NCBI RefSeq assembly: GCF_041260155.1
Contig: NW_027248277.1
Span: forward strand, 20,399,377-20,463,376
Origin: Ptychodera flava
Taxonomy: Eukaryota > Hemichordata > Enteropneusta > Ptychoderidae
Direction of reading: 5' to 3'
Length of the DNA: 64,000 bases
Made by a program: the position numbers and the translations under genes. The notes under the pieces were generated by a model that did not search any database, was not told where the DNA came from, and saw nothing but the letters and a program-made list of their open reading frames with translations. Positions 26,684-60,429 of this stretch are shown piece by piece; within the stretch, counting starts at the first letter, position 1, and each line of letters starts with the position of its first letter.

Positions 26684-26829
26684 CACGGTCGTAGTGATCC
26701 TAGCATATTTCGTATTTTATCTTCGTCGATGGTTTATTTGAAATATCACAGTCAAAATTAATAATATAAATATTTTATTGCTGAACAACACACTATGGGA
26801 GTGCGGTAAAGCATAGTGTTTGTGGAGGA

Positions 26830-27227: not shown

Positions 27228-27239
27228 ATACTTTTTTAT

Positions 27240-34620: not shown

Positions 34621-34759
34621 GGATAAAGCCCGAGTACGAGGGCTCTTCTGGTATATAAAGTCCAACCCAACGATAAAATGTCGAGGCCGCAGGCCGAGAC
34701 ATTTTATCGTAGGGTTGGACTTTATATACCAGAAGAGCCCGAGTATGAGGGTTTTATCC
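34621..34759 (+). repeat. Palindrome P1, 61-17-61, GCA-capped hairpin
   Basis: Two 61-base arms flank a 17-base centre, CGAGGCCGCAGGCCGAG (34,682-34,698). The centre folds as C-G, two G.A mismatches, four GC pairs and a GCA triloop. Arms are complementary apart from a few bases, except at mirror positions 34,631-34,640 (CGAGTACGAG) and 34,740-34,749 (CGAGTATGAG). These run in the same orientation and so place two further tandem G.A/A.G mismatches in the stem. It sits in intron 1 of the NLR-like gene. Confidence 0.9.
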
Positions 34760-34902
34760 GACTTAAAAACTATCGCCCCTAACTAATATATTTTCGTTTT
34801 CAATGTGTTTACGTCAACCGTCCCCTTTGTCAATGTAACATGTTTAGGATATGAATTAAAACTTTTATTTGTGAAATAGCCTTCCAATGTAATGGAACAT
34901 CC

Positions 34903-34943
34903 TATAAATGCCCTAGGGCACATTATATAAATGCCCTAGGGCA
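34903..34943. repeat. Short tandem duplication containing CCCTAGGG
   Basis: Two copies of TATAAATGCCCTAGGGCACA follow each other; each contains the 8-base palindrome CCCTAGGG inside TGCCCTAGGGCA. Confidence 0.75.
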
Positions 34944-36068
34944 CAGCAGATTTTGTGTTGCAGCTGGTTTCCGCTGTGTTACCAAATTTGAATATTAAAA
35001 TGTACCAGATGTCTACAGAATATGACATGTTCACTTTTGATTGGACAGTACTTTACTATGGCGCTGTCATTCGTTTCTGGAATTTTGGTGACCAAGGCTT
35101 TACGAGTAGATAAAACACCCTGAATTGAGCACTCTGATTGGTCAATCAACAGTAGATAGTTTTTAATTTCAGATATCGAACTAATATCACCTGCGCTTTG
35201 TGTTGTATGTTCAAACTCAGTCAAATAAAGCCCCAGTAGCTGAGAATGAGTAATGGTCCGATCTCAAAATATCCTCAGTTTTCCAAGAATTTTCTCCGAA
35301 ACAGACCCATTGGAGACTTAAACATGTATACGCTGTCATGAGTGTCAAAAGTGGCATATAAAATCAGACGTTTTAACATCATTTTAGATTTTCCGCCATT
35401 TTCAAAAACTAATCATATGACAGAGAAAATAAAGACTAAAACAACAAAATGTCAGCCATAGTAGGGTGAGCATTTCAGTGAACGGTATCTAGCTTGTTTC
35501 TGGTATAGTCACGATGTGTATATGCGGGAAATTCTTTATTTGTGTATTTTTCTGTTGGCACCATTTTATGAGTGTGGCACCCGTTTATTATTCAGCCTGT
35601 TAAAACATGTAGGCATGGTCCAAATCAGTGACCAGTGATACGTCTATACACGTCATTGAGTTAGCACATTAACACGAACCAATTCTGGTTTGAAAATAAA
35701 ATAATGAAAACAATGCATAAAATTGGCAGCTATTGGGGCTTTAAAACGCTTCTAAACGGTCTTAGGCAAAATACTGGCATAAAAGTTACGTTTGGTTTGT
35801 AAATCCATACAAATGTTCTCATACACATATTGCCATGTCAGAATGAGATGAACAATTGTATTTTTTTTATTTTTTTTGTTCTTGGTATAAAATATCTTTA
35901 CAACAACCACTTACAATGCTGGTTTGAAATTTGGCATGAAGGTTCCATTGAGTGGTAGTACCATAACTTACTCAGATTTTGTTTTTTATGAAAAAAATTA
36001 ATAAACATTGTAAAAGGATTTTCTTTATTATACCTACAGAAAGTAGAGTGTTAAAGTAGTAGAGTATT

Positions 36069-36752
36069 AAGGTTCCAAGACATGAAATTGAGTTTTTTAA
36101 GCCGACAATTTTCTAGCGGTAAATAAGCTCAGAACCCCCGTAAATTATATATTTTCGGAAACCCTAGATATAGGGAAACATTTTGGTTACCATAGTGTGA
36201 CCATTGTTAACATAACTATCACGTGACAGATAATTTGCATAACCTTTCAAAAATCAGTTTCCCCTATGTTCTGTTTCAATGCTATGAGATATTTAGCTGA
36301 AATTTGTGTGAGTGCAAGCTGTTCTAAATATCGTCCAAACAGTGTCTCAGAATTTTTTTAAACCTTCTTAAACAATTATGCCAGAAAAACGTCCAGAGCG
36401 GTGAATAATTTAGCCCTAGTTGATTTCTTTAACATTTTTCCTCAAATAAAAACTAAGCAAGATATAAAAAATCCGAGACAAACTTTTGAAGAGCACTGTG
36501 ACAGCTTGCATTCCAGAAAGAGTGGGTCAGATATTTAGAAGAATTGAGACAAAACATAAAGAAAACCGATTTTTGAAAGGTTATGCAAATTTCCTGTCAC
36601 GTGATAGTTATGTAAACAATGGTGACACTGTGATTACCCATACCTTCCCCTATATCTAGGCTTCCAGAAAATGTATTTATTACGGGGGTCTGAGCTTATT
36701 TACCACCAGTGAATCGATAGAATAAAGAGGTCAATTTCTTGTCTTGGAACCT
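36069..36752. mobile_element. Foldback element with ~210-300 bp inverted arms
   Basis: The left arm begins AAGGTTCCAAGACATGAAATT at 36,069; the right arm ends with its complement at ~36,752. Arms include the matching segments TAAATAAGCTCAGA(AC)CCCCGTAA, CACGTGACA and GCATAACCTTTCAAAAATC, and similarity continues weakly towards the centre (~36,410; GCAAGCTGT on both sides). No transposase frame and no clear target duplication were found. It is probably a non-autonomous DNA element in intron 1. Confidence 0.8.
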
Positions 36753-37053
36753 TGATTTGAAACTATTGTTTACGTTATGCAAATACGCACAGCCTGGCGT
36801 GAACGTGAGTGATTTGACAGCATCGTACCAATCACTATATGGTCACGTTATGAAAGCACCAAACTTGGCGCTTTCCCCCATGATTTAAAATACATTAAGT
36901 TGATGAAGCCTTAAACAACAACTTCCGCCGTAGTCCGTTTTGTAAATAAATTGCTTTTCCAGAATAAGCAACCACAAAGCTAGCACATATGCAAAATTTA
37001 GCCAAGGTGAATTTCCCTTTAAAGGTTTTCACAACTTGGTCATTTTTTCACAG

Positions 37054-37306
37054 ATATCAAGTCTATAGCAGATCTCGAATTTAAAGACTGGAAGACAAAG
37101 TTTGAGACCGGCTATCTGGCAGACGAAGAAAGACTTTTTGAAGTCCAAAAGAAGAAAACACAGCTAGAATCCAAGATTAAAACTAATGCAATTTTAAAGG
37201 ATGAAATAATAGACATTTACAAACTCGAAAAACAACGGATCATTGAGAAAAATAGCCCAGATTTAGTAAAAGAGTTATATGCAGCCTTAAAGAATTTAAG
37301 GGCAGA
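37054..37306 (+). CDS. NLR-like gene, exon 2: charged helical linker
   Basis: Acceptor tttttcacag|AT and donor GCAGA|GTGAGA. It encodes 84 codons rich in Lys/Glu (LEFKDWKTKFETGYLADEE, KKKTQLESKIKTNAILKDE), predicted mostly helical and possibly coiled coil. Phase 1 in and phase 2 out, compatible with exons 1 and 3. The frame would stop at the TGA that overlaps the donor, so splicing is needed to continue. Confidence 0.65.
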
Positions 37307-37359
37307 GTGAGAATCAATTGATGATGGTTCTTTACGGTTAATGTTAAGCTTTCTTTCAG

Positions 37360-37535
37360 AAGAAAACATGGACTTTTTTGGCAGAAATACAATTCAAGTT
37401 GCGTGGAGGACGTCTTGACAAGTCTTCTAATAACGCCAAAGATGAGATCACTTGCGGAGGACGGTGGGTTTACTGTCAGAATCAGACTGAAGATAGATCG
37501 GAAGGAGTTCCATTCTTCTAAAGAAACACTTCATG
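37360..37535 (+). CDS. NLR-like gene, exon 3: pre-NACHT segment
   Basis: Acceptor ttctttcag|AA (followed by AAG, a CAGAAG tandem acceptor) and donor CATG|GTAAGC. It encodes HGLFWQKYNSSCVEDVLTSL..ITPKMRSLAEDGGFTVRIRLKI, resembling the segment that precedes NACHT in animal NLRs (a YlssL..i..sP motif and an acidic/hydrophobic strand). The intron before it is only 53 bases. A NACHT P-loop should follow but does not. Confidence 0.6.
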
Positions 37536-37572
37536 GTAAGCTTACAAATAAAGACTCTTAGTCACTGTGGAG

Positions 37573-37763
37573 TTAAAGGTATACTATCACCTGTTCCAAT
37601 TTTGCCAAAGTTACCATAGAAAGAAGAATTATAACCAATCACAGATTTTAAGCGCGTGGCCGCTTTTTGAAAACAGCGCCCTCTCAGGGCATTTTGAATA
37701 CAATGGAACGCCCCTTTGACCATATATGGGCTATTTAGGTTATAGGTGACTGTATACCTTTAA
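37573..37763. mobile_element. MITE with 16-bp terminal repeats, TTAA flanked
   Basis: AGGTATACTATCACCT at 37,577 and its near-exact inverse AGGTGACTGTATACCT ending at 37,759, each bounded by TTAA. The 183-base body has no coding capacity. TTAA duplications are typical of piggyBac-type insertion, but the termini are not ones I recognise. Confidence 0.75.
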
Positions 37764-37862
37764 GGACTTAAACTAAGTTACGACTTGAAAATCGAACAAA
37801 TATAATAATTTGTGTATTCCATGCGCACCTTGTGGTAATTATGGTAATTTACATGTTATTTA

Positions 37863-38750
37863 TTAAAGTGGCACTCCCGCTTGGTAACATTTTTAAAGCT
37901 CATTTTTAATGCCAACGGGCGATATTTGACGTGACGACTGCGCGCGGATCACGAGATATCGATAAAAACATGTCCTCAAAAAAGTAAAAGTTTGAATTCC
38001 GGTGGCCCACCTAAATTCAGCTTCCGAACATTGAACGTTAGGTACTGGGGCCATTGTCAACTAAGCTAAGGAGTACGAGTCTATGCTTTCGCTGCTATAT
38101 GCCACAGTACCACTCGCGTTGGTGATCGGTCATGCCCCCTGGGGGAAAGCCGAGTCTTACTGACTCTGAGAAAAAACGGAAAACAAAGTTTGCTGATTCC
38201 ACCAGATTTCGCATAGGTGACTAGCACAGTTACGTGCGGTTGATACATAGCGGCAGCCGAGTGGTATGCATAGACGCATACCGCGCGCGCGGCGTACTGT
38301 GTGGCAGACGACAAAATGTAGCCATCGGAGACGGCTAATATTTGACACATAAAAACTGATGTTTATGTGGTATTGGTTAAAAACATAGTACAACTGATTT
38401 AGAATAATGAAAACGACAAAAACAAAGGAGAAGTTTTACAAAACTTACCTGAGGTAATGGCATATTGCTGTATATAAAGTCTTTGCAGTGGGAAGTAAAT
38501 TAATTGCGTCGTTCGAACTTTTTGTCGACTCCCTAGAATATCGTCAATCAACACAACAACAAACCTTCGAGGGATTTCGGATCAAAATCAGAAACGATCG
38601 TAAAACTTCGGGATGTGAAAAATACGCTCGGGAAATGACATGTTTTTATCTATATCTCGCGATTCGCGCGCAGTCGCCACGTCAAATATCGACTGTTGGC
38701 ATTGAAAAAATGTGTTTTAAAAATGTTACCAAGTGGGAGTGCTTCTTTAA
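37863..38750. mobile_element. MITE with ~110-bp terminal inverted repeats, TTAA flanked
   Basis: The left arm (37,867-37,978; AG.GGCACTCCCGCTTGGTAA, ATATTTGACGTG.CGACTGCGCGCG, GATAAAAACATGTC) is repeated in inverse at 38,636-38,746 at roughly 85% identity by eye. TTAA lies at both outer edges. Open frames inside (38,081-38,393; 38,488-38,784) show no transposase motif. It is unrelated in sequence to the smaller TTAA element 100 bases upstream. Confidence 0.82.
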
Positions 38751-38980
38751 TCTACCCCTTCAATGTATTCGTCAAAGTAACTGATTAATGATAGGCTTAG
38801 ATAGGGAAAGTAATTTTGGCATGTAAACGAGATAAGCTAATTGTTGCCTCATGTACCATGTCGGTAACTATATAACTTACATAATTGATAAAAAAAATGC
38901 CTAATGTAGATTTTTCAAGTTGCAAATGTTTACTTAATTTTTGTTAAAGAACAATAATATCGTATTTCTACTCAAAAACA

Positions 38981-39084
38981 GGAGGATATCGACTCGATTT
39001 TGGTACAATACGCTCCATATAGCACTCGCCTATCGATTCGTACTATATGTCGCCCATTGTACCAAAATCTCGTGAATACCCTCC
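38981..39084 (-). repeat. Palindrome P4, decayed, same cap on the - strand
   Basis: Arms of ~44 bases (..GATTTTGGTACAAT..CCATATAG and inverse) flank CTCGCCTATCGATTCG (39,025-39,040). On the - strand this reads CGAATCGATAGGCGAG, the P2/P3 cap with two CpG-type transitions and one extra loop base. The stem also contains CTCG facing CTCG, that is CGAG opposite CGAG on the - strand. It lies in intron 3 of the NLR-like gene. Confidence 0.7.
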
Positions 39085-39579
39085 CGCGGTAGGGTTTATT
39101 GCTTAAATTAATTACGATGTTAACATATCAATAAAGGAGGTCAAGCTGTTTTAGTTATGCGCTATGCGCCTATTTTCTTCCAAATAGATGCAGATTGATG
39201 TCTTTGTTTTTTTCCACAAAAAACTGCAGCTCTTTTACATAATTTGTTTTCATAAAATTTACTGGAACTTTGATTGGAATTTTGACAACACTATTTAAAG
39301 CCGAGGTCTTAAAAAGTCGAACAATGAAATATTATGAAGAGAACAGTAATTCGCTATACTCGGACTGTAAACGACTTATTTTCGACAAAAGAGAATAAAT
39401 TTATCATAGTTATTTAAAAGGTTTGCAATTTTGCCTTTTATCGGTAAAGTTTACTGAAGAGCAGTATGCACTTTGAAGTGTTTATCATGGATACGTGAAA
39501 CGCGATGTCGAAATAAACATCACATCAATGTGACTTTCTTAACTATGAAAGGTATCGAGTACTAAGGAAATAATCCTAA

Positions 39580-41239
39580 GGGACGGACCATTAGATCTTG
39601 GGAGGGGGGTGGTCAAAAACAGGAAAAAAAATTTCAGAGCAGAAAGTTAGGAAAAAAAAATCTTCAAACTAGTTTGCAAAATAAAAAAAAGAAGACAAAG
39701 GCGTAAAAAAAAATTTGCAAAAGTCTTTAAAATTTTGAATTTTTTTTAGATTTTACCGACAGAAAGCAACTTTCTGTATTTTTAGTACATCCTCCAGGTA
39801 CATTTTTAATTTTAATTTATACATTTAGAGTGACTGTATCCCTTATACTGGAAGTTGTGATTATCTTATCTTTTCAGGGCTTTTGTATTCTGATCACTTG
39901 AAAATTATGAAATTATAGAGCCTGTTTTCTACTTGTTTCCTGTACAATCCTGCGTACAAACCAAGCAGGTACACTGGGTAAAACATTGAAACTATGGTAT
40001 GGTTGTCAAGACAGAAAGTTGTATTTGCCTTTTAAGATCAAGGTAAACAGATGCAGGCCACATCAGTTTCATTTTTTTCAAAGCATTTTATTGCAATGAT
40101 GAATGAAAGAATGGGTGAACAAGTAGAAACACGTCAATAATGATAAACAACATATCAAGTCATTATGTATTATTTTGCTTTTAAAGGCATTTTCAATTCT
40201 TTTTTCTCAAAAAACAGCCTCAAAAAACAACATCAACACATGTTTTAACATTCAACAATACACTACGTAGAATGCCATCTATCCAACAAATCCCAACACA
40301 AAAACATACAAAAGGGTTGAACTTTGAAAGTTTCTCGATAGCAAATACTGAATAAATCTGCATGAATAATCGTTTTTGTGTAGCAAATTTCAAAGAAATT
40401 GGACAAGCCCTTTCAGAGAATACAGATTTTTTGACCATGAATGGCATAAATTGCCCTAAAAAGACAAATATTGAAATTTCAACACATCTATACACATCCA
40501 ATCAATTTGGACATGCTGCCACAGAGAAATAGATGTTTTGATCAAAAAAGGGCAGCAATTGCTCTAAAAACAGAAATATGCAAATTTAACTATATTATTT
40601 AGCTTATTTTAGCTTCTCAGCCTGTCAAAATCAATTGTAAATCATAAGATATGCATGATGTTTGGTGGGGTGAATGAAGGCATTTCACCACGCAGTAGAA
40701 AGGGAAGCCAGGAAACCAAAATAGTCAATTTTCAAAACTATAGGAAGCTACTGAGGAGCAAGACGACCATGTTTCAGAGGAAGATGTGTAATCCGAAAAA
40801 ATGCTCCCAAAGTGCCACCAAAAAAACACCATTTTTATCTCTATTTTTCAAAAGCTCCAACAGCAGGAGGGGGACCATCCCTCTCCTGACCTCCCCCCGC
40901 AAAAATACTCCCCAAGTGCCACCAAATAACACCATTTTAATCTCTATTTTTCAAAAGTTCCAACAGCAGCAGGGGGACACCCCTCTCCTGACCTCCCCCC
41001 TCCCGTGACTGCTTGCGTGGCCGCTTGTGGTGCTTGGCACCACATCTTTGCCCTCTTTATCTTCAGACAGTGATGAACTAAAAAAAATTATAAATGTGAA
41101 AATTTACTCTGAAAAAAAAATTTGCACAGCTAATCTCAATCGGAAAAAAAAATTCAGAAATTTACAATAGTAAAAAAAAAATTCACAATTTCATTGTGAC
41201 CACCCCCCTCCCCCCTCCCAAGGTCTAATGGTCCATCCC
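39580..41239. mobile_element. Non-autonomous DNA transposon, 1.66 kb, TAA target duplication (Harbinger-like)
   Basis: GGGACGGACCATTAGATC...GGGAGGGGGGTGGTC at 39,580 is inverted at the right end (GACCACCCCCC...AAGGTCTAATGGTCCATCCC, ending 41,239). TAA flanks both sides (39,577-39,579 and 41,240-41,242). A 3-base TWA target and GGG ends suit PIF/Harbinger, but no transposase or Myb-like frame is visible. Inside are two diverged ~110-base copies near 40,380-40,590 and two near 40,800-41,000. Confidence 0.75.
40800..41005. repeat. ~105-bp tandem duplication inside the Harbinger-like element
   Basis: Two copies of gtgccaccaaa..acaccattttta...tctctatttttcaaaag.tccaacagcag.agggggac, each ending in ctctcctgacctccccc. 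The long open frame across it only reflects this duplication. Confidence 0.8.
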
Positions 41240-41513
41240 TAAGTACCTTACACTGCATAAAAACCCTATAATACTTACTGTATAAACATGGATTATTGCC
41301 TGTATTTTAGCTGAAGAGTGCATATTCATGAGATTCATGAGATATCCCATATCTGTACATCAGCCAGATATTGTAAGGTCTGGGCGAATGGAAAAATCCT
41401 GGCAATGTATAATTACACTATTCAACTTGCCCATAATATACTTAACATTCACTGAGGACAAACGTGAGATTCATTTCAGACATTATGAACTCCAAACACC
41501 TCATGCAATCAAT

Positions 41514-41515
<2 letters not shown>

Positions 41516-41591
<76 letters not shown>

Positions 41592-41592
41592 A

Positions 41593-41659
<67 letters not shown>

Positions 41660-41660
41660 T
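41516..41660. repeat. (TC)n-(TA)n microsatellite
   Basis: About 36 TC dinucleotides (41,516-41,587) followed by ~30 TA dinucleotides, in the last intron of the NLR-like gene. Confidence 0.95.
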
Positions 41661-41895
41661 TAAGTCATTATTTCACACAACGCTCTCGCCTGAAATACTT
41701 CATAACACCATAGCTGTAAAATCCATTTTGCACAATGCGCATGTATCGAAACACATCATACGTTTCAAGTGATCGAATGCATGACAATGATCTACTTGAG
41801 TTACTCGTCAATTAATGACTTCTAATGTTTTACTCTAAGACACTTTGTATTTATATCAAAAATCATGTTTGTTTATCAAATGCATCTATCTACAG

Positions 41896-44800
41896 ATATG
41901 CATGCCGTGTACACTCGCTGGAAGAAGACCTACAGCAGGATGTTGGCTTACAATATATGGGAAATGTATATCCTGAATCATGTACATGAAAATCAGGTTG
42001 TGTACTTAATACAACAGTCAAGATTTCACCCAATTTGAGTGAGTTGAGAGATGAGTTTTTCTTTCCCTCATTTGTATCCTACTGGTATGAAAATATGTAC
42101 AATTTACCATCGACTTTGACAGAGGCAACTGAATATGCAATCAAACACCATGTACAATTGTATTGTAAGGAACATAAGCTTGAGGTTGGGAATATTTTGG
42201 GTGTAGTGCAGGATAGGCTCTACGAAATTGGAAAGCAAGCATTTGATAACTATCCTCAGACACCAACATCCTTTATTAAGCTTAATGATTCCTGTGACGA
42301 TCCTTTTTTGTTTGACTTGTTAGATGGAGTGAAACGATACCACATCTTGTGTTTCTTTAAAAGGCCCCTCCGTTCAGTATATATTTGGCGTCAGCACATA
42401 TACTTTTATGCTATGGCATTGTATCTGACCAAAACCAAGAATGCTCTAATGAGAAAGGCTACTTTCGAAAAGTGTGTAAAATCAGTACCAACCGTACTTC
42501 TCTTTGTTGCTGGTATTCTCAAGGAGAAAGCAGCATTCTTCTTCATTCTTTCACATATACTATCAGCAAGGCATATCCCGTGAACATAGAGCTGCTATCT
42601 CTTCTAGGATGTTGCCTCTTAGAATCTAAGAATTCTAAAAAGTTCATTGGCATTGTCAAGCATCTTATGAAATCACAGAGATTAGATTTGTCAAACGACG
42701 AGTTTGACAACACTTCTCATTATGGTCTGAAGGCCATAGCATCAGTATTACAACAGATCTCACTCATTGAGAAAGTGGTGTTGGTAGGTCAAGATGAAGA
42801 AGGAAACATATCAGGCAGCTTTAAGAACTGTTTGAAATTTCATGTTGATAATCCAAACTATGATGTTGAATTCCATGTTAAAGAAATGGCGGAGTTAATA
42901 ATAGTTGCTAGATATATCAATTTCTATGAGCTGTTAATCGCCCGAAAGTCAGATGAAAACCGTAGCGAGACTACCTTACGCTCTATTACTATCAAAGCAA
43001 CTGAAGCCATGAGATACAATGAATCGCATAAAACCGGAGAAATGCTTGTCAGGGCGCTAGCATTATGTCAAACTCTAAAAACTCTCCATTTAAGTGGATT
43101 CCAGAACAAATTTGTCGAAATATTATTTCTCAAACTGAAGATGAAATGTAAACCACTCTCAGTAACCAGGATAGAATTGCCCAATAATAAATTGGATAAC
43201 TCTTCTGTACAAGTCGTATTGGATGCTATAAAGTTTGTCCCATATCTAGAACAATTAGATGTCAGAAACAACAACATAAATTTCAGGGGAAGTGTAGCAC
43301 TATTACCTTTGGCTGATAAGGTCAGCATCCTTTCAGATAATAATGCAGTGGAGGAAGGTTTTAACAGTCTGCTTGGATATAAAGCTATGTCAGAACAGAT
43401 TGGTGACTTGAAACCATATACGGCAGAAATTAAGACCATTGATGACATCAGAAAGTTCCAGGGTAAATCAGTGCACGTGACACGATTAAAGATACCTAAA
43501 TCGTCGACTACAACCGATATCGTCGGCGCAATGTTTTCAAAATTGGCATTATTTACACATCTGAAAGATGTAGATTTCAGTGAGTGTGGTATAACTGAAA
43601 AAAATGCTAGGGTACTTGCTGATATGTTTGAATCTTTGTGTAACTTGGAATATGTCGATCTTAGTTCAAATAACATCGGAGACGATGGTGTAAACTATGT
43701 TGCAAAGAAATTAGAGTAGTTGAGAAACATTAAATACGTAGATTTCAGCAAAACCAACATAACTTTAAGAGGAATAGAAGATTTATATAATGCTACTGAA
43801 ATTTAACAACGTGAAAAGATAATTGTTGCTCATAACTTGACAGGATTAGTTTATGTCTTGCCGTACATTAAACACAAATTGACTTCATTTCCTATGGATA
43901 TTAATCTGCAGGCAGATAGAGTCTCACTTGACAAGTTATCTTTCATCACAGAATTAAACAAAGTTGCTAAGACACTAAGAGTAAGCAAACAGTGGGAAAG
44001 AAAGGAGTTTGAATCCTTTTGCCATGGCGTGAGTGTTCTCTATATGTTAGAGTACCTTAATCTTGATCGTGGAAACATTGGAGAAGTAGGCACGGAGAGT
44101 TTGAGTAAGGCTGTGAGGTTGTTACCAAAGCTTAAATATCTGTCTCTGAGTCATAACAGAATAGGGGATCACACTGCAAAGATTATTTGCAGTGGAGTTA
44201 GTAACCAGAACGAGCTTGGTCACCTTGATCTTAGTCACAATGATATCAAAGAGAATGGTGCTGAGAGTGTGGTTAGCAGCATACATGGCTTAAAATGGCT
44301 GAGGCACCTAGATCTCAGTCATAACAAGATTGGAAGTCATGGTGCAGAGATGCTAGGCAGGAAAATTAATAATCTGCACCATTTGAACCTTGGTAATAAT
44401 AATATAGGAGCTGCTGGTGTGAAAGGTTTATGCATAGGTTTAGGAGAAATGACTTGGCTCAGACATTTAGATCTCAGCCATAATGATGTTGGGGATGTTG
44501 GGACTGAAAGCTTGGTCAGTGTCACTAAGAAACTTACTAGGTTGAGACATCTTGTACTGAGTCACAACAACATTTCAGGTGTTGGTGCAAAGAAGTTAAC
44601 TGAAGGAATAGAGAAGCTGACTTTGCTTAAGCGCCTTGATCTGAGTTATAACAATCTCAAAGTTGACGGTACGCAGAGTATTATGACACCATTAGAGAAT
44701 ATGAAGCAGCTTAGACGTCTAGATTTGAGTCATAGTGACATTAAAGATGACGGTGCATGGGTCGTGAGGAAGGGCATTGTCAAAGCTAAGTGGCTGAGGC

Positions 44801-45624
44801 ACTTAGGTTTGAGTCATAACAAAATAGGGGATGTCGGAGCAGGTAGCATCAGCGCAGAGGTCGTAAAATTGACACAAATTGAGCACTTCGATCTCAGTCA
44901 CAACAGAATCAGAGATAGTGTCGCAGAGAGATTATGTGAGGTGATTGTGAGTATGGCTAATGCAATGAAAAATCACGGAAGTAGCAAAGGTAACAAAGTT
45001 ACAAATTTGGACCTGAGTCACAACCTGATCACAGACTCTGGTGCCAAACTTCTGAAGTCAACGGTGCAAAATTGTGATGTGGCCCCATCTGTTGATTTAC
45101 GTTGTTATAGAGTGCATAATTTAGAACAGTATCTCAGTACAAAATCTCCAGGGAAATCTGATAAACCAAACGCACTTGAAGCAATGGTCCTCCCATCACC
45201 TCTGAGGCCAAAACCTTTTACCGGGAGCCAAGCCAGCCAATCCTATTTAGGATCAAGTGATTCTGCTTACCACTCTGATTTAGCGTCACGTGATTCAGCT
45301 AGTCGTTCCGATTTAGAACAGCGCGAAGCGGCTAGCGGTTCCTATTTAGAAGTGGATGATTCAGTCAGCAATGCCGACTTAGTACTGGGTGATTCGGCCA
45401 GTTGTTGGCATTTAGGGCCAGGTGGTTGGGCAAGCTGTTCTGATTTAGTACCAGGTGATATGGCTAGCCAATCGGATTCCGTTCTGGATTATTCAGCCAG
45501 TCGTTCAGATGTAGTACAAGGTGATTCAGCTAGCAGTTCCGATTTAGCATTAGGTGATTCAGCCAGCCATCTGGATTCTTCTCCCATTGACAGTGACTCC
45601 ACCAATAGTTCTGTAGAGATGTAG
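41896..45624 (+). pseudogene. Large last exon: NACHT-end/winged helix, LRRs and repeat tail (broken)
   Basis: Acceptor ctatctacag|AT joins exon 3 in phase (G|AT). First frame to ~42,029: MHAVYTRWKKTYSRMLAYN..QQSRFHP. Second frame 42,032-~42,570: NLSELRDEFFFPSFVSYWYEN, then LPSTLTEATEYAIKHH..GKQAFDN (winged helix) and VLLFVAGILKE. Third frame to 45,624: RI-type LRRs with the LRHLDLSHNKIG..GAE consensus. Each shift is explained by one missing base. In the third frame TAG at 43,717-43,719 (KKLE*LRN) and TAA at 43,804-43,806 (TEI*QREK) each replace what is plausibly a Gln codon (CAG, CAA). From 43,837 on, 595 residues remain open, with 12 regular LRRs and the 11-residue tail. P-loop and Walker B are absent. 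Confidence 0.8.
45226..45600 (+). repeat. 33-bp minisatellite coding an 11-residue Ser/Asp repeat
   Basis: About 11 copies of a DSASxSDLxxG-type undecapeptide at the C-terminus of the LRR protein, for example DSASRSDLEQR, DSVSNADLVLG, DSASSSDLALG. Copies diverge in sequence but keep the exact 11-residue spacing and the frame. Confidence 0.9.
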
Positions 45625-45667
45625 GAACTAAAAGATTGGCCATTGATAAGACATATATTTGCATTCA

Positions 45668-45673
45668 AATAAA
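45668..45673 (+). terminator. Polyadenylation signal AATAAA of the NLR-like gene
   Basis: AATAAA lies 44 bases after the TAG stop at 45,622-45,624. Confidence 0.6.
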
Positions 45674-45679
45674 CCAGAG

Positions 45680-51050: not shown

Positions 51051-51055
51051 GTATG

Positions 51056-51092
51056 ATGAATGGATGGATGGATGGATAGACAGCTCTATCTG

Positions 51093-51149
<57 letters not shown>

Positions 51150-51240
51150 GTCTGTCTGTATGTCTGTCTGTCTGTTTGTCCGTCTGCATGTCTGTCTGTC
51201 TGTCTAGATCTGACTGTCTGCCTGCCTGTCTGCATTTCCA
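51056..51240. repeat. (GGAT)-(ATCT)n-(TCTG)n compound microsatellite
   Basis: A short GGAT run, then ~14 ATCT copies (51,090-51,150), then TCTG/TGCC repeats. Confidence 0.92.
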
Positions 51241-52008
51241 TCCACCTACCACTATACCGGATGACCTGCTTAACGAGCCAAATCGATCGGCTCAATATTT
51301 CTAAAATTTTCTGAACAGGTCAACAAACACTCATGCAAGAACAGACACACCATAACTAAAGCATTACGGAACTGAATAGAAAGCGAAGGCAATGCTACTC
51401 GTTGCCTATACATTTTTTAATGAAAAATAAGAGACGGATAAATTCAAGCTGTCACAGAGTGTACCATTCAAAGAAAAGTCTGGCTAGTAACTGTGCATTT
51501 GGAAAGAATGGATGAGCATGCGGATTTCTAAAAAAAACTGATTCTGCACAATTTTGTCTGCATTCAAAAGATCGAAATGACATTCTAGTTATACGGTAGA
51601 GTTTATATTTTTAGTTATTCATGCTAGAATGTCAGGCAACACTACCAACAGACCGAAACGTTCCTTGCCCATTACCAAGAATTCTTCCAAGCGTCATGCT
51701 CGATATTGTGCAGTAACGCGTCTGTTATTATTAGGCAGTCCAGCCCAATCATACATTTACGAATGAGTTACCTTAGCTGACCACAATTTATTTGCATATT
51801 AAAACGGAAAAGGTGTCATATAGGTGCTACGCTACTGACTGTAGTAAAATTGTGCCAAAAAGGCACCTGTAAGTTATTGGAGTGTCTGTGTTTTCATTCA
51901 TTGCTATCGTCTTAGTCAGTCTCGAGGAGACGCTACACCGCCCTGTCAAAACCATAGCCGCGTCAATAGCTGAGTTGATATCATTTTGTAGCGCCCGGTA
52001 ATCCAACT

Positions 52009-53103
52009 TCAGCAGAGCCATTTCATTTGTTCTTCATACACTATTTTATTCAGTCCGCAGACATCTGACTGCAATTTATGACAGAATTCCTGGTCCTCAT
52101 TTTTCTGGCACCTGACCTTTGCAGCGTTCTGTACGGATCTAAATTTTGCGAGATCAGCTTCGAAGTCGCCATCATAGTTGGCAACCCTTTTCCAGAAAGT
52201 CTTGTTAAAAATGTTGTACAAGCGTATATCTGCACGTGACACTTTTGTTATAATATCTCGCATTTGATTGGTCATCGGTGGTTGATACTCAGTGTGCACT
52301 TTGCATGGGTGATAGATAATATCCTCAAAGTTCCAACACATTGTCTTTTTGAGTAAAACAAGCGACTCGTCGAAGTACTCCAAAAGCATGACAAGGTCGA
52401 GCTCGTCGTTCAGTCTCTGTAACGCAGCAAGTGAAGATGTCTTGTTTGCATAAATATCAAGGCCAAAGCGAACGGAGAAGGAGTTTGAACCCTGTAGTAA
52501 TGATTTATCAACTTTGACATCCTCGATGATGTCACGGAGGAACAGTGCGAAAGGGTCTGGCGACATTGTCAAGTTCATATCCTTCCTATCGTAGTAAAAA
52601 CGTGATTTCAGATGTGTGTATGGCGATCGCACAATCGTGAAATACTTAGCATTTGGAATGATACGTTCAAGTGACAGGCGATCATACATGTCAATATGCA
52701 AACAAAGATAGTCATATCCTGGAAAATTGCTACAATTGTAGTATAAAATCCCGAGACGGTGGTTCTTCCTGTCCAATCTTATATAATAATCTTCTTTGTT
52801 TACTTTTTTCAACGCTGCCACAAGCTTATTCTCCATTGCGAATCGAAGCAACATCGAAGACACTGTACTTCCACCTGTCTTTTCTGGTTTTATGAAGACG
52901 AACTTCGTGACCGGTTTGCAAGATCGAGGCGATGAGCTCAAAGAACCGTGAGTAGATATGTTGTACAATTGTTCATTGCCTCTTATGCTGGTGTTAACAT
53001 GTGTTTGTCCGTAAGATAATCCGAGGTTAAGCAAAACAACGGAAAGAATAGAGTTCAATAACATTTTTAACATGTCTGGTAATATTAGCATCAAATTTAA
53101 CAT
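52009..53103 (-). CDS. Galactose-3-O-sulfotransferase-like enzyme, copy 5 (intact)
   Basis: 364 residues in one exon. The first ATG gives a longer hydrophobic leader (MLNLMLILPDMLKMLLNSIL..) than copy 2; internal Mets at 5, 11 and 14 are alternatives, and Met14 aligns with the copy 2 start. Seen: the PAPS 5' loop FIKPEKTGGSTVSS, the 3' loop TIVRSPYTHLKSRFYY, and the family block LDLVMLLEYFDESLVLLKK with CWNFEDIIYHPC. It is clearly diverged from copy 2 (for example LFLRDIIEDVKVDKSLLQGSNSFSV), with most changes conservative and no stops, which suggests it has been maintained as a working enzyme. Golgi type II location is inferred from the leader and family. Confidence 0.88.
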   Translation of the reverse strand: MLNLMLILPDMLKMLLNSILSVVLLNLGLSYGQTHVNTSIRGNEQLYNISTHGSLSSSPRSCKPVTKFVFIKPEKTGGSTVSSMLLRFAMENKLVAALKKVNKEDYYIRLDRKNHRLGILYYNCSNFPGYDYLCLHIDMYDRLSLERIIPNAKYFTIVRSPYTHLKSRFYYDRKDMNLTMSPDPFALFLRDIIEDVKVDKSLLQGSNSFSVRFGLDIYANKTSSLAALQRLNDELDLVMLLEYFDESLVLLKKTMCWNFEDIIYHPCKVHTEYQPPMTNQMRDIITKVSRADIRLYNIFNKTFWKRVANYDGDFEADLAKFRSVQNAAKVRCQKNEDQEFCHKLQSDVCGLNKIVYEEQMKWLC

Positions 53104-53669
53104 TTAGCATCATCAATGTAATATGGGAAGAAAGTGCAATCTCTTAGAAAAATTGTTGCAGGATTAACTAAAGCAGACAGATATCCGACTCCCATACTAG
53201 TCTTGTACAATGAACCTTTTAGCCTACGTCTTTTTTAAGCTTAAAGGGTAAACGCAACTTTCACTGGAATTTCTTTTCCTTGAAAGAGAACGGCTGAAAG
53301 TTTGCTTGAAGAGAGTTTGAGAACACGTTTTAATCATTCATTTTCGATTCGCTAACTACCTCAAGTATGTTCCCATGACACAAAATATATGTATTAGTAA
53401 TGATTTGGCAATTGGCATGGAGTGTTCGCCTGTATATTACCTTGGGAGGTCTCAATAGGAATTCTGACTCATCAATTTTGACACAAAAAAATAAAATCAC
53501 TTACACACTGTTTCTCCTTGAAATTCTGGTAAGGTAATTCAAATAAAAAGCTGACGTAAAACACACCATACAGACGACAAAAGTGAACATGCTGCTTCTG
53601 TTACAGCCGCACGTAACTGTAATAGAATCACAAACATTGAGCAGCAGAGAAAATCCTATGAGTTTCATT

Positions 53670-53815
53670 ACGTATGTATCTTTGTATGGATGGATGTACG
53701 GATGTTTGTATGGATGGATGTACGGATGGATGTACGGACGGATGTAGGGATGGATGGATGGATGGATGGATGGATGGATGGATGGGTGGATGCATGCTTG
53801 CATGCATGCTTGCTG
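53670..53815. repeat. (GGAT)n microsatellite upstream of sulfotransferase copy 5
   Basis: GGAT-based repeats with TGTA/TACG interruptions, ~570 bases upstream of the gene start, the same place as the (ATGT)n tracts of the other copies. Confidence 0.9.
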
Positions 53816-53959
53816 TAAAATCAAATGAAAGGCAAATAAATCATAGCCTTTCACTGTTTGAGATGACAGTTTGATTTTGGAGACAGCTGGTGTGGTGGTG
53901 GTTATCATACAATTCTTATCTCAAAGCTTGAACATTTCAACCCGAATGCCAGGCTTTAC

Positions 53960-54193
53960 GACTACAACTTGTGGAAATTGTTGGCAACCATTTTTATCTG
54001 TGTCATCTTACCGACATGAAAAATTCACCCCAATAAATCGTATATCGGTGAATTCGTTAATGTATTGTTAACTGTTGACTACAACTTCTGGAAATTGCTG
54101 GCAACCATTTTTATCTGCGTCATCTTACCGACATGAAAAATTCACCCCAATAAATCGAATATCGGTGAATTTGTTAATATATTGTTAACTGAA
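53960..54193. repeat. 117-bp tandem duplication
   Basis: Two copies (53,960-54,076 and 54,077-54,193) beginning gactacaactt.tggaaatt and ending in attgttaactg.. differ at only a few positions. Units 1-4 have a single equivalent. Confidence 0.88.
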
Positions 54194-54985
54194 AGCAATA
54201 TTTCGAACCTTTCTCCATTTTAGTATCATAAATTCTCCGATAAAATCTGGGAGAAGCAATAAGAATAATTATCGTGTCACGGTCCAGTAAAATGGAACTC
54301 TTAAATATTGTAAATGTGTTATTAAGATGGCAAACTATATCTTACCTTTCGAAGTGGCTGTTTTCATGGTAGTTACTTATAAGGGAGAGAGAGAGGTCTA
54401 TCTGCAAAGAATGTGACAATGGTAGTTCCGTAAACTCCCAAAAAACATTCAGATGTCTTCACTCATCTCATCGCGAACAGGCTCGAACTTACTTACTGTC
54501 AATAGATATCCTTATCAGCTCAAAATCTCGATAACATCTTGTAGAGATGAATGATCCAAAATAGTGTCCCTTTGAAACCTTAAAAATTATCAACTATTTA
54601 ACTTACTTGTGGTCGCTCACGAGCGGAATTTAGCTCACCTTCAGCGAACACTTTTCTGCAGATGTAACAGCTTGCGAAAAATCAAACAGACAAGCCTTTC
54701 ACGTGATGAAGGTTAAATGAACATTTGGCGTTTTCCCTTGAATACAATAATTTTAATAACGTCGTAGTGGCTATTGATTTTTCTTGTACAGACATGTGCT
54801 GAATAGATTTCTGTAGGTCGGATAAGCGGCATTGAGTGCACAATTTTTTGTAGTAGAAAGGCTTTGTGAAATTCTCAATTTACAGTTACAATAACACCAC
54901 TGCAGTTATTGACATTTGTTGCTATGTGTTTTATTGAGATATATGTTTGTCACTTTTTTGTTTTGTTAGAGGCCATCTGTGGCTA

Positions 54986-56787
54986 ATAAGCATTGGGGGT
55001 CGTAGTCATCCGAGTATTTCAGTTTTATCCGATAATTTTACATTAGTGACGTCACCGTTTCTACCTTTCTAAGGTAGAATGCGCCTATTTAAAGAACTGA
55101 TACTCGGATTTTTACTGTGTTTTTTTTTCATCTGCGTGTTGGGGCTTCTTTTCAACATTCAAGAAGTAAACTCAATTTTCACGTTCTTACTTTGCTGAAA
55201 ATAAGTAAATATTTGGCAATTTGTTTTTCTAGTACCAAATTTTGTGACCCCTCTTTTTTAAAACTTCTTTTGGGGGGGAAATGGATTTAAGTTTCTTTAT
55301 AGCAAGTATGAGTAAACATTGCGGTCTTTCAATTTCGAGGCATGGACCATCTTAAAAAGAAGTACAGGAATTTCATAATTACTATAGTTTTGGGAGAAAC
55401 CCTGGTGCAACCATTTGCACTGCAGTTTACTCCTGATGTAAGTAAATATATGAAGTCAGACTGACCAATTATCTCCCTAAAAATCATTGGTCTCATCTAG
55501 TACACGTCAGCCCTTTCAAAGATGAGTAAGTGTAAGTTACAAAATAGGTGTTGCACTTGAAAAAGTGAAGTGAATACCACAGAACACAAAAAATAATATG
55601 TATGACAATTGACTTGTACGGTATTTTGTCATTCACACACATTCACGTTCAGGATCGAAACAGAAAGGAAACTCACAAAGTAAGTAAAAATGCTACAAAG
55701 ACGCAACAGTTTGCTAAATGTTAAAAGTGTGTGCTGAAATTCACAAAAAATTAATTTCCCTGTTCACAGAAGCAATAAATCGAAATGAATCGAAACGGGC
55801 GTGCGTAAACGGGCACAAAGTCATATACATACCACGCTAACAATTGGTACGGGACATAAAGCCAGCTCCACGATGTAGGGTATAGGCTCTACCCGACAAA
55901 CGTTTTGCGAATGTATCTAAATTGTTATCTATCATCGGCACCTGGCCCTTAAACGAATTTCTCCAGTGCCGCTACTTCCAAAATATTAAGTTCTACACGT
56001 GGACCTCACTCTGGAATTGAATCGTATACCAAGACTCTCACGTCATGGGTCACTGCAATCTCCCACACAGAGATTGAAGCACAGTGGGACAGCAGCGCTG
56101 CGTGGATAATTCGAACCAACCTAGAGGGTCTCCGAGTCGTTGACCGCGCACCCCCACCAATCTCTGCTGCAGGCAAATTTAAATATTCCAAACTCTGACT
56201 TCTTTCAGTCCTGCGCGCGCCCAACTGGCTAAATAAACGTGGCGGAAATAGGAAACGGATAGGAGCAATCCAGCTAGAGATCGCACTTTCCGCACACTGG
56301 TAAAAATAATACATTAATACACTAATAAAAATAATAAATAATCTGCTAAAACTTTGGCAATCGCGTCTGCAAAGCTGACAGCCGTTGGGGCATACATTTT
56401 GAATCATCAATTTACATCCCTGTAACCTAGAGCAAGGTCTATGTTTTGCAAGTGTTCACGGAAATGAGGATTGATATTGAAACTAGTGTACTATTCATTT
56501 ATCTAATTTTTTTTGGTTCGAAGTATTATATATAAAAAAGACAGAAAATGTATATCATGGAAAACGCGCAATACCCAAAAAGTTGGTGAAACCGTCGCCT
56601 GTGGCAGAGATTAGTGTGGTTGCTGCTGAGACTCCCCACCTAGGTTATAATTTTCCACGGCGCTACAATCTCTGTACGGAGATTAAGGTCACTGCACAGT
56701 CCGCCGCGTGTGATAGCATAGCCCACGATGAGAGAATAGGCGAACAGGTCTGCGCATGCGTACAATGACGATAGCAAAGCCGTCGTC
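54986..56787. other. Region without a recognised gene
   Basis: Open frames include a 134-codon - strand one at 56,006-56,410 with no domain I recognise. No repeat structure was noticed. Confidence 0.5.
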
Positions 56788-56794
56788 ATTTAAA

Positions 56795-56977
56795 TAATAA
56801 CACACGACAGCAAGGGCAAGATCACGTTTTGTTGCCCGCCCAAGGGATGGTGCTCATGACGGTAATATTGATGATGCCCGAGCCGAAGGCGAGGGTATCA
56901 TCAATATTACCGTCATGAGCACCAGCCCGAGGGCAGGCAACAAATCGTGATCTTGCCCGTGCTAGCGTGTGTTATTA
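56795..56977 (+). repeat. Palindrome P2, 84-15-84, GAA-capped hairpin
   Basis: Two 84-base arms around CGAGCCGAAGGCGAG (56,879-56,893). The centre folds as C-G, tandem G.A/A.G, three GC pairs and a GAA triloop. In the stem CCCAAGGG (left) faces CCCGAGGG (right), consistent with an ancestral CGAG-opposite-CGAG pair and one CpG decay on the left. Confidence 0.9.
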
Positions 56978-57899
56978 ATTTTATTACACCGAACAAAAAC
57001 TTGTTTTCGAAACTTTGCTCAGAATGCAGTCAAGTGTCGATCGAGACTCTCCACAGTGAAACGTTCTATTTGTTGCTCGATCTCTGCTACCTCCATGCTC
57101 GATCGCAATGCTACATGAAGTTGAATTAACGTCTAAAAACGAAGAGAGTGTTGTTCAAGCTTTTCTCGTTTAATGTACTAAACGTCGTCGTGTACTTCAT
57201 TTCTTGTACCTTTTCAAAAGCCATTGCTTTACAAAAAATTCCAAGCAAATGTACGCGATGATGTGGTACGCGCAGAAAGGACGCGCGGTATTCCAGAACG
57301 TGGTAGCGGGCTATATCACTGCACGCGACAGGGCTATATCAGCGCACGCGACAGGGCTATATCAAATAAGCCATGTTCTATCACTTTTTGTTCTATATCA
57401 CGTGAGTGAGGTTCAGCCAATCACAGTACCTGAATAATACGTAAGATGTAATAAATTTAATTATTACACCTCACGTATTATCCAGGTATTGTGATTGGCT
57501 GAGCCTCACTCACGTGATATAGAACAAAAAGTGATAGAACATGGCTTAGGTGATATAGCCCGGTCGCGTGCAGTGATATAGCCCGCTACCACGTTCTGGA
57601 ATACCGCGCGTCCTTTCTGGGCGTACCACATCATCGCGTACATTTGCTTGGAATTTTCTGTAAAGCAATGGCTTTTGAAAAGGTACAAGAAATTAGCTGC
57701 ACCCGAAGTAGAGGACATTTAGTACATTGATGATTAAACGAGAAATGTCTTTGTTTTATAGACGTTAATTTAAGTTGACCTTCATCTTCATGTAGCATTA
57801 CGAACGAGCAACAAATAGAACGCTTCGCTGTGGAGAGTCTCGATCGACTGCATTCTAAGCAAAGTTTCGAAAACAGCAGTGTTTATTCGGTGTAATAAA

Positions 57900-57989
57900 A
57901 TTAATAACACACGCTAGCACGCTGGTGCTCAAGACGGTAATATTGATGTTGCCCGAGCCGAATCTTGCCCTTTCTGGCGTGTGTTATTA
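57900..57989 (+). repeat. Collapsed copy of P2 (P2')
   Basis: It reads taataacacacgctagcacg, ctggtgctcaagacggtaat, attgatgttgcc, then CGAGCCGAA (57,954-57,962), which joins directly to tcttgccc..tctggcgtgtgttatta. The join lies right after the GAA loop bases, so most of the second arm is deleted. The loop is in the + orientation, not the reverse complement expected for the right arm of the larger palindrome. Confidence 0.8.
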
Positions 57990-57996
57990 TTTAAAT

Positions 57997-58431
57997 GTAG
58001 CCAGCCTGTAAGCCGTCGGTGATTCTAAAAGTTCTCATATGAGTGGCGGGCCAACAAAGGTATAAACGGCCATGAAACTCGCAAATGTTACACAAAACTA
58101 TAAGATGAGCATTAATAAGGAAACATTGGTCCCACGTTGCCTCAATTCACACAAACACAAACTATTGGTACGCAAATGTGACAACTTTCGTTTAGGGAAG
58201 ATTCATTTTTACAGGGAGGGGAACTTAATCTATAAATGAAATGCAAAAAGCGACCCACCTCTAAATTGAATTTCTAAAATTTGAAACCCCAAATTCATCA
58301 ATGGTAAAATGTGACATCCCCGAATGTTTCATCTGATTTGATTCACTAAACCTTTTCACCCTAAGACCCTTGGGTGGCGTTGACATTTGGAAGTACCACG
58401 TGGCACAACTTCTGACCTCTGAAATAATTTC
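57997..58431. other. Short region without a recognised feature
   Basis: No gene, repeat or structure was recognised here. Confidence 0.5.
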
Positions 58432-58720
58432 CTCATAGACTACAATGAATAATGAATCAACATTTTGTTGAAATTCAATTATCAAGTTTCTTGCACACAC
58501 GTCTACTTTCACCCACCCTAGTCTAATCAACTACATTAATATAAACAAAGCGTTTATAAATACACAGGTTCATATTCATAGTTTGCTCACAGACTACAAT
58601 GTATAGAGAATCGGGATTTCATTGAAATTTTCAAAGTCAAATTTCTTGCTTGCACGCACATGTACTTGTAACCTCTAATCAAGTACAATATCAATAATCA
58701 AGCGTTATAAATACACAGAT
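58432..58720. repeat. Two tandem ~140-bp repeats (copies A and B of three)
   Basis: Copy A 58,432-58,568 and copy B 58,588-58,720 share ..agactacaatg.ata, caa.tttcttgc....c.c.t.tact and aa.caa.gcgttataaatacacag. A third copy (C) stands at 60,281-60,420. Confidence 0.7.
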
Positions 58721-58732
58721 TTAGCTAGGTTT

Positions 58733-58910
58733 ATATATATAATCCCATGGTATTTTTCTCTGTTTGACGTCATCGTATACGAGTGTTTTTCGCGGAGCTT
58801 TCGCGGAGCCGTACAACTTCGAGCCGAAGGCGAGAAGTTGTGCGGCTCCGCGAAAAACACTCGTATACGATGACGTCAAACAGAGAAAAATACAATGGGA
58901 TTATATATTT
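58733..58910 (+). repeat. Palindrome P3, GAA-capped hairpin
   Basis: Arms of 87 and 76 bases around CGAGCCGAAGGCGAG (58,820-58,834), the same 15-mer as in P2 although the arms are unrelated. The left arm is longer by an 11-base tandem duplication of TTTCGCGGAGC. Otherwise the arms are almost perfectly complementary (TTTGACGTCATCGTATACGA and inverse). Confidence 0.9.
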
Positions 58911-60280: not shown

Positions 60281-60420
60281 CATAGACTATGTATAGTGAA
60301 TCAACATTTAATCGAATTCCAAAATCAAATTTCTTGTACACATATGCACTTTTTACCACCCTAGCTTAACAAAGTACATTAATATCAATCATCAAGCGTC
60401 TATGAATACACAGATTTAGC
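60281..60420. repeat. Third ~140-bp repeat (copy C)
   Basis: Same segment as copies A and B, in the same orientation, ending atacacagatttagcta.. like copy B. Confidence 0.7.
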
Positions 60421-60429
60421 TAATTTGTC

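What the first reader, a model, noticed from the sequence alone, without database searches (positions are those of the whole stretch)
34621..58910. Four long palindromes with unrelated arms but one shared hairpin-cap design
P1 (34,682), P2 (56,879), P3 (58,820) and, on the - strand, P4 (39,025) have different arms, yet their centres are CGAGGCCGCAGGCCGAG, CGAGCCGAAGGCGAG (twice, identical) and the decayed CGAATCGATAGGCGAG. Each folds as C-G closing pair, tandem G.A/A.G, a short GC stem and a purine-rich loop: GCA, GAA, GAA and GATA. In DNA, GNA triloops and sheared tandem G.A pairs in a CGAG/CGAG setting are known to be unusually stable, so the centre looks designed as a single-stranded mini-hairpin. 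Sharing only the centre, not the arms, is unlike ordinary MITE families and suggests that the cap either seeds inverted duplication of flanking DNA or is recognised by a protein.
Basis: partly seen in the sequence, partly recalled or inferred. Interest (0 to 1): 0.92.

Follow-up and report, generated by a model that had tools for sequence, protein, structure and literature searches.

The report
Capped single-strand hairpins in acorn worm
Four long palindromes with unrelated sequences in an acorn-worm genome share the same tiny hairpin tip and mismatches that mostly suit folding of one DNA strand, which suggests that the folded single strand, not the double helix, is what matters.

Summary
The window is the acorn worm Ptychodera flava or a very close relative. 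P1, P2, P3 and the decayed, borderline P4 are palindromes with unrelated arms. All three exact CGAG-N7-9-CGAG matches lie at palindrome centres.

A further signature was missed. Outside the cap, arm mismatches on the cap strand are 20 G.A or G.T against 2 C.T or A.C. Three cap-less inverted repeats of the window give 34:34 (Fisher p = 8e-4). Several are tandem G.A modules like the cap's own. So the design suits folding of one strand.

In viral contigs the 19-nt P2 cap occurs in 13 stretches, three altered controls in 0; P1's cap in 27 against 4. Of 120 distinct bacterial sites returned by a capped scan, only 1 clearly has long arms (ungapped test).

Best reading: elements whose working form is one folded strand, more likely DNA than RNA, nucleated and perhaps recognised at the cap. 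"The cap seeds inverted duplication" fits less well. No genome-wide count was possible; n is four palindromes in 64 kb.

The parts
34621..34759 (+). P1 palindrome, cap strand +
   Evidence: 68-nt arms, 87%; z -17.4
34682..34698 (+). P1 cap CGAGGCCGCAGGCCGAG (GCA triloop, tandem G.A)
34629..34642 (+). P1 left-arm module CCCGAGTACGAGGG (two tandem G.A steps around GTAC)
34738..34751 (+). P1 right-arm module CCCGAGTATGAGGG, same strand as the left one
56785..56988 (+). P2 palindrome, cap strand +, nested in the left arm of a 1.2-kb palindrome
56879..56893 (+). P2 cap CGAGCCGAAGGCGAG (GAA triloop)
56839..56846 (+). P2 left-arm decayed module CCCAAGGG, opposite CCCGAGGG at 56926-56933
56926..56933 (+). 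P2 right-arm module CCCGAGGG
58732..58911 (+). P3 palindrome, cap strand +, 11-nt insertion in the left arm
58820..58834 (+). P3 cap CGAGCCGAAGGCGAG, identical to P2's cap
38981..39081 (-). P4 palindrome, cap strand -
   Evidence: z -6.9 on the cap strand, -5.5 on the other; borderline
39025..39040 (-). P4 decayed cap CGAATCGATAGGCGAG
39069..39072 (-). P4 module CGAG, pairs with CGAG at 38993-38996 (minus strand)
38993..38996 (-). P4 module CGAG, partner of 39069-39072
39048..39053 (-). P4 second module GCGACA, opposite GGAGC at 39012-39016
39012..39016 (-). P4 second module GGAGC, partner of 39048-39053
56783..58007 (.). 1.2-kb cap-less palindrome (centre 57459) that holds P2; 9-bp direct repeat AAGCCGTCG near its ends; its P2-free part was used as a control
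57921..57997 (+). Shortened P2 copy in the right arm of the 1.2-kb palindrome, with CCCGAGCCGA on the + strand

Best explanation
P1-P4 are remnants of short elements whose working form is one strand folded into a long hairpin. Folding starts at a hyperstable mini-hairpin cap (C-G pair, tandem G.A, short GC stem, GNA loop) and zips outward; tandem G.A modules in the arms are tolerated or favoured because they stack well on that strand alone. The arms only need to pair, so they vary freely between elements, while the cap is held constant. The cap acts as folding nucleus and probably as the feature that a single-strand-specific protein recognises, such as a transposase or nuclease acting on ssDNA exposed at replication forks or during mobilisation.

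Shown here: the palindromes, the shared cap, the strand-specific mismatch bias, and its absence in cap-less inverted repeats beside them. Inferred: that the folding is of DNA rather than RNA (three loops are GNA triloops, known as hyperstable in DNA, not the GNRA or UUCG tetraloops that I recall as typical of stable RNA). Conjecture: the protein, and that the elements moved.
For: Arms without cap: 13 G.A to 0 C.T and 7 G.T to 2 A.C, together 20:2. Three cap-less inverted repeats of the window give 11:15, 6:3 and 17:16, together 34:34; Fisher p = 8e-4. Grouped by hand into runs of adjacent mismatches, 14 to 1 with 1 mixed. All four fold better on the cap strand than on the other, with DNA and RNA parameters. 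GAA mini-hairpins melt about 6 degrees above GTA (PMC6479982, passages). Elsewhere the exact cap recurs and its altered controls do not, or less: 13 stretches against 0, 0, 0, and 27 against 4 (30, 66).
Against: Only four palindromes, one of them decayed and borderline, in 64 kb. Mismatch columns within a tandem are not independent. P2 contributes both contrary A.C columns, and keeping P2's unpaired outer end would add the one C.T (20:3). No target-site duplication for P1 or P4, no second full copy and no protein was found; translations of P1-P3 matched no database protein of 173-550 aa. RNA parameters show a larger strand difference than DNA parameters, so DNA over RNA rests on loop type. With DNA parameters the capped tip gains only 0.4 kcal/mol over the other strand in P1, 2.0 in P2 and 0.5 in P3. 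The outside hits are not all independent: 27 viral stretches reduce to 22 distinct sites, and L031 and L053 share flanks. In group samples of bacteria the cap is not common: 5 of 198 genomes (one the seed), with 2 of 198 for the reversed pattern, and 1 of 60 (the seed). Of six outside cap sites folded with 75-nt flanks, four fold better on the cap strand with DNA parameters and two worse. A small inversion could create the P1 and P2 modules without selection.
Confidence: 0.42

Rival explanations
1. RNA-level hairpins: the palindromes are transcribed from the cap strand and selected as structured or double-stranded RNA (hairpin RNA or small-RNA precursors). Tandem G.A and G.U pairs suit RNA as well.
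For: The strand difference is larger with RNA parameters: P1 -110.2 against -97.3, P4 -61.3 against -40.6. G.T outnumbers A.C 7:2.
Against: Loops are GNA triloops, not the tetraloops recalled as typical of RNA. No Rfam family reaches its gathering score in the window. No transcript data could be consulted.
Confidence: 0.22
2. The cap seeds inverted duplication: a 3' end ...CGAG folds back on the mini-hairpin and primes copying of the flanking arm.
For: CGAG pairs with CGAG through tandem G.A, so such an end could prime (inference). Arms are unrelated. P1 has no visible target-site duplication.
Against: Copying gives exact complements, so the G.A modules within P1, P4 and P2 arms would need double transversions in the same direction, or small local inversions. 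Of 120 distinct bacterial sites with the P2 cap, only one clearly has long arms by an ungapped test, so the cap does not usually generate arms.
Confidence: 0.12
3. Ordinary palindromic MITE or fold-back transposons, with the shared cap a coincidence or a trace of distant common ancestry.
For: The neighbourhood holds other inverted-repeat elements (36066-36756, 37862-38751, 56783-58007). P2 is nested in one of these, which has a 9-bp direct repeat near its ends.
Against: Those cap-less neighbours show no strand bias (34:34). Cap position at centres is not chance. Arms show no family relation.
Confidence: 0.14
4. Repair or flip bias: one strand extrudes as a hairpin because of its cap, and repair inside the hairpin removes C.T and A.C but leaves G.A and G.T, or small inversions create the modules. 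The bias is then a by-product, not selection.
For: Could give the same 20:2 pattern and needs only cap-driven one-strand folding.
Against: Does not explain why unrelated palindromes have the cap at all, nor why modules sit in CGAG context.
Confidence: 0.1

Closest known systems
Phage N4 virion RNA polymerase promoter hairpin
   Same: C-G-closed loop with 5'G and 3'A; one strand's loop is structured; the hairpin itself is the recognition signal (PMC4496689, passages)
   Different: Short stem (length recalled), phage promoter; here 40-100 bp arms, tandem G.A modules, animal nuclear DNA, no known reader
Bacterial REP-like hairpins of the form TCAT-CCCGAGCCGAAGGCGAGGG-A?C (the name REP-like is mine, from recall)
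   Same: The identical 19-nt cap: 51 of 125 sites in the 120 loci of a capped scan have this flank
   Different: Short stems, bacteria; any link to RAYT/Y1 transposases is recalled and not tested
Mitochondrial repetitive hairpin elements (sponge RHE, Volvox palindromes, LIMP)
   Same: Palindromic hairpin repeats; in Volvox a favoured short loop and palindromes nested in palindromes (PMC2670323 and PMC2800124, passages); LIMP with an invariant 7-nt loop (PMC4524435, abstract)
   Different: Organellar (or organelle-derived) families with related stems; Volvox loops TAAA/TTTA; in the sponge elements described, stems are conserved and loops vary, the reverse of this case
Palindromic MITEs / fold-back elements
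   Same: Short non-coding inverted repeats in animal nuclear DNA
   Different: No target duplication found for P1 or P4; unrelated arms but common centre; strand-biased mismatches

Membership tests
MITE (TIR DNA transposon derivative) | Target-site duplication at the ends | tested here: inconclusive
   P1 only 6-bp chance-like matches, P4 none of 5 bp or more, P3 only AT-rich TATATAT; the 1.2-kb palindrome has a 9-bp repeat AAGCCGTCG
MITE (TIR DNA transposon derivative) | Members of one family share terminal and arm sequence | tested here: not met
   arms of P1-P4 unrelated to each other
MITE (TIR DNA transposon derivative) | Multiple copies in the genome | not testable with these tools
   No genome held; in the window only P2 has a partial second copy
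Bacterial REP / RAYT substrate | Short imperfect palindrome with conserved tip folding as ssDNA | tested here: inconclusive
   Same cap in bacterial hairpins, but arms here are several times longer
Bacterial REP / RAYT substrate | Associated Y1 HUH transposase | not tested
   No search for HUH proteins in P. flava or near the bacterial sites was run
Mitochondrial repetitive hairpin element | Located in organelle DNA | tested here: not met
   Sulfotransferase gene cluster whose best database match lies on a 29-Mb contig; reverse transcriptase and LRR genes
N4-type promoter hairpin | C-G-closed loop with 5'G and 3'A on one strand | tested here: met
   P1 C(GCA)G, P2 and P3 C(GAA)G; P4 GATA loop, decayed
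N4-type promoter hairpin | Extrudes in supercoiled DNA and binds a dedicated protein | not testable with these tools
   Needs probing and binding assays
Self-primed inverted duplication | Second arm is an exact copy of the first at birth; later mismatches of any type | tested here: not met
   20:2 one-strand bias with tandem G.A modules, unless small inversions made the modules

The most novel reading that the evidence does not exclude
A class of animal mobile element that spreads as a folded single strand and whose only conserved part is a hyperstable DNA mini-hairpin cap with tandem G.A modules, so that one enzyme could mobilise elements with wholly unrelated arms.
Probability: 0.15. Interest if true: 0.88.

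Novelty: new variant of a known kind. Interest (0 to 1): 0.56.

Why it matters
Palindromic repeats are usually grouped by arm sequence. Here arms are free and the tip is fixed, and mismatch types reveal which strand folds. The mismatch test (G.A and G.T against C.T and A.C, with cap-less inverted repeats as control) is simple and could be run on any genome to separate single-strand-folding palindromes from ordinary inverted-repeat transposons. If the pattern holds genome-wide in P. flava, it would point to a single-strand process acting on nuclear palindromes of an animal that I did not find described.

Tried and rejected
Chance was rejected for cap position, although the bare motif CGAG-N7-9-CGAG is not clearly over-represented in the window (3 against 0.92 expected; 5 of 100 shuffles reach 3). 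A scan for any 2x2 mismatch behind an 8-bp perfect stem gave GA/GA at P1 and P3 only: 2 against a shuffle mean of 0.2 (largest 2, 30 shuffles). TG/TG and CA/CA also occurred twice, and P2 and P4 were missed, so this scan is weak support.

One diverged family was rejected: arms unrelated. Known RNA families at gathering score: none in the window; tRNA: none.

Multi-copy evidence by way of proteins: joined stop-free translations of P1-P3 found nothing at E <= 10. P3's cap with 4 bp of arm on each side: 0 in viral contigs. Empty sites: none found in the window; flanks of P1, P3 and P4 have no copy that spans the insertion. r2 and r3, the ~150-bp repeats near P3, diverge close to P3's left edge, which may be an insertion or just a repeat end.

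The P2 copy with its cap on the same strand in the other arm of the 1.2-kb palindrome was first taken as evidence of strand selection. I do not rely on it, since a palindrome can flip.

Rows dropped: P2's outer nine columns (they hold the only C.T), P4's outer end, P3's 11-nt insertion, and all cap columns. With everything kept the counts were 24 G.A, 1 C.T, 9 G.T, 3 A.C. An automatic alignment gives the same direction for each of the four, P4 being listed there on its other strand. A further cap-less palindrome listed (14300-14387) has 6:3 and was not in the pooled control; the pooled three were chosen by me.

Papers: ten searches, seen as listings, except six papers opened: PMC11175523, PMC4496689, PMC2670323, PMC2800124 and PMC6479982 (passages) and PMC4524435 (abstract). 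'Ptychodera' with 'palindrom' gave 3 papers, none by title or start of abstract about genomic palindromes. The P. flava genome paper PMC11175523 has no 'palindrom', 'MITE' or 'Helitron' in its main text. That I did not find this pattern in print rests only on these searches of an open-licence library. Recalled and from no call: REP/RAYT and Replitron biology, RNA tetraloop preferences, N4 stem length.
Full report
Source. A galactose-3-O-sulfotransferase-like protein encoded at 52012-53103 (-) is 98% identical over 90% of its length to a Ptychodera flava protein, with next hits in P. flava, Glandiceps and Saccoglossus. The window is therefore hemichordate nuclear DNA.

Observation. Among inverted repeats with arms at most 60 nt apart, the four with the longest arms are 57331-57584 (core of a 1.2-kb palindrome), P2, P3 and P1. 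A gapped scan of centres gives 103.6 for the 1.2-kb palindrome, 67.9 for P2, 59.5 for P3, 49.6 for P1, then microsatellites, 26.0 for a cap-less palindrome at 36413 and 23.0 for P4; two resamples reach 18.9 and 21.4. P4 is thus borderline by that score, but its fold has z = -6.9 with 0 of 200 shuffles as good. The arms of different palindromes are unrelated. The centres are as quoted, and all 3 exact matches to CGAG-N7-9-CGAG in the window are palindrome centres.

The extra signature. I aligned the two arms of each palindrome and classed every mismatch as it would meet in the folded cap strand. With the cap and unpaired ends removed, the four palindromes have 13 G.A, 0 C.T, 7 G.T, 2 A.C, 3 A.A, 2 T.T, 1 G.G and 1 C.C; one C.T lay in a removed end of P2. 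On the opposite strand each G.A is a C.T and each G.T an A.C, so a palindrome that drifts without regard to strand should be even. Three inverted repeats of the same window without the cap (36066-36756, 37862-38751 and the P2-free part of the 1.2-kb palindrome) give 11:15, 6:3 and 17:16, together 34:34. The contrast 20:2 against 34:34 has Fisher p = 8e-4; the columns are not all independent. Runs of adjacent mismatches, counted by hand, give 14:1 with 1 mixed.

Modules. Much of the bias comes from a module like the cap's own: C-[GA]-G opposite C-[GA]-G. P1 has two of them around GTAC/GTAT inside CCC...GGG in each arm; P4 has CGAG/CGAG and CGAC/GGAG; P2 has CCCAAGGG opposite CCCGAGGG, one step from the module. 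In P1 a plain copy of the left arm would read CTCGTACTCG where CGAGTATGAG stands. Such double transversions are hard to reach by drift in P1, whose arms otherwise differ at three sites. This is my main objection to the idea that the cap merely primes an inverted copy. It is not absolute, because a small inversion between CCC and GGG in one arm would do the same in P1 and P2.

Folding. Both DNA and RNA parameters fold the cap strand better for all four palindromes. With DNA parameters the values are -61.4 against -58.5 (P1), -91.2 against -90.5 (P2), -85.2 against -83.6 (P3) and -28.8 against -23.1 (P4); with RNA, -110.2/-97.3, -150.2/-147.7, -131.7/-125.3 and -61.3/-40.6. The 1.2-kb palindrome shows a small difference of changing sign (DNA -543.2/-540.8, RNA -838.4/-849.7). 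The DNA parameters do not seem to credit GNA loops: the cap alone gains only 0.4 kcal/mol over its complement, and the tip with arms 0.4, 2.0 and 0.5 in P1, P2 and P3. Evidence for GNA stability comes from the literature: GAA mini-hairpins melt about 6 degrees above GTA (PMC6479982, passages). [quoted passage not shown]

The cap elsewhere. In viral contigs CCCGAGCCGAAGGCGAGGG is found in 13 stretches (L031 and L053 share flanks), against 0 with an AAA loop, 0 with the permuted loop AGA and 0 with the tandem reversed to AG.AG. P1's 17-nt cap is found in 27 stretches, 22 distinct by flank, against 4 with the permuted loop ACG. One of them, L122, has 9 bp of perfect arms. Of 125 sites in those 120 loci, 51 have the flank TCAT-cap-A?C, a short repeat-like hairpin, and 83 of 125 lie in long stop-free stretches against 275 of 300 random positions. 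By an ungapped test only one of 120 distinct sites clearly has long arms (L251, an Anaerolineales contig). Among 125 viral sites of the 15-mer, itself a capped list, one has long imperfect arms (L118). Of six outside sites folded with 75-nt flanks, four fold better on the cap strand with DNA parameters (L251, L203 and both L118 sites) and two worse (L122, L163). In genome samples from two seeds' groups the cap is rare: 5 of 198 and 1 of 60, seeds included. So the tip is a recurrent design, but long arms on it are not usual outside this window.

Mechanism. The data say that one strand's fold is what has been kept or favoured. DNA seems likelier than RNA because three of four loops are GNA triloops, known as hyperstable in DNA, though RNA parameters show the larger strand difference, and I cannot exclude RNA. 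A GC-rich centre should hinder melting of the duplex but nucleate folding of exposed single strands (inference). I therefore favour single-stranded DNA as the working form, with the cap as nucleus and possible recognition site. Whether the elements moved is open: P1 and P4 have no visible target duplication, P3 only AT-rich repeats.

Context. P2 lies within the left arm of the 1.2-kb palindrome 56783-58007, with the 9-bp repeat AAGCCGTCG near its ends. A shortened P2 copy with CCCGAGCCGA on the + strand is in the right arm. P3 lies about 10 bp from a tandem pair of ~150-bp repeats, and a 13-mer at its right end recurs inverted beside a third copy at 60241. These may tell what carried P3, but I could not resolve it.

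Verdict. A real, non-random and unusual pattern, stronger than reported because of the strand bias, but resting on four palindromes in one 64-kb window. New variant of a known kind (hairpin-forming palindromic elements); the class claim needs the whole genome.

Noticed in passing
1-21431, 26668-28298, 51539-53126, 60608-62290: Tandem cluster of galactose-3-O-sulfotransferase-like genes; repeat units of about 7 kb, blocks 88-98% identical, with 80-85% copies further on
   Followed up: partly
21578-26544: LINE-type retrotransposon in pieces: reverse-transcriptase match (24286-25809), with zinc-knuckle and endonuclease matches below their curated cut-offs in other frames
   Followed up: partly
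42361-45624: Leucine-rich-repeat protein gene in two stop-free stretches
   Followed up: no
36066-36756 and 37862-38751: Two cap-less inverted-repeat elements (about 81% and 89% arms), used as strand-symmetry controls
   Followed up: yes
58424-58570, 58578-58721, 60270-60422: About 150-bp repeats, two in tandem just left of P3; exact 13-mer GTTCATGTGATAA at 60241 (+) and inverted at P3's right end 58909 (-)
   Followed up: partly
34909-34943: Short palindrome TGCCCTAGGGCA...TGCCCTAGGGCA 150 bp to the right of P1, without the cap
   Followed up: no
L167, L188, L230, L249 and L176, L190, L240, L260: Saprospira and another Bacteroidetes bacterium carry repeats in which the same cap sits among further mini-hairpin-like motifs, mostly followed by A-rich runs
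   Followed up: no
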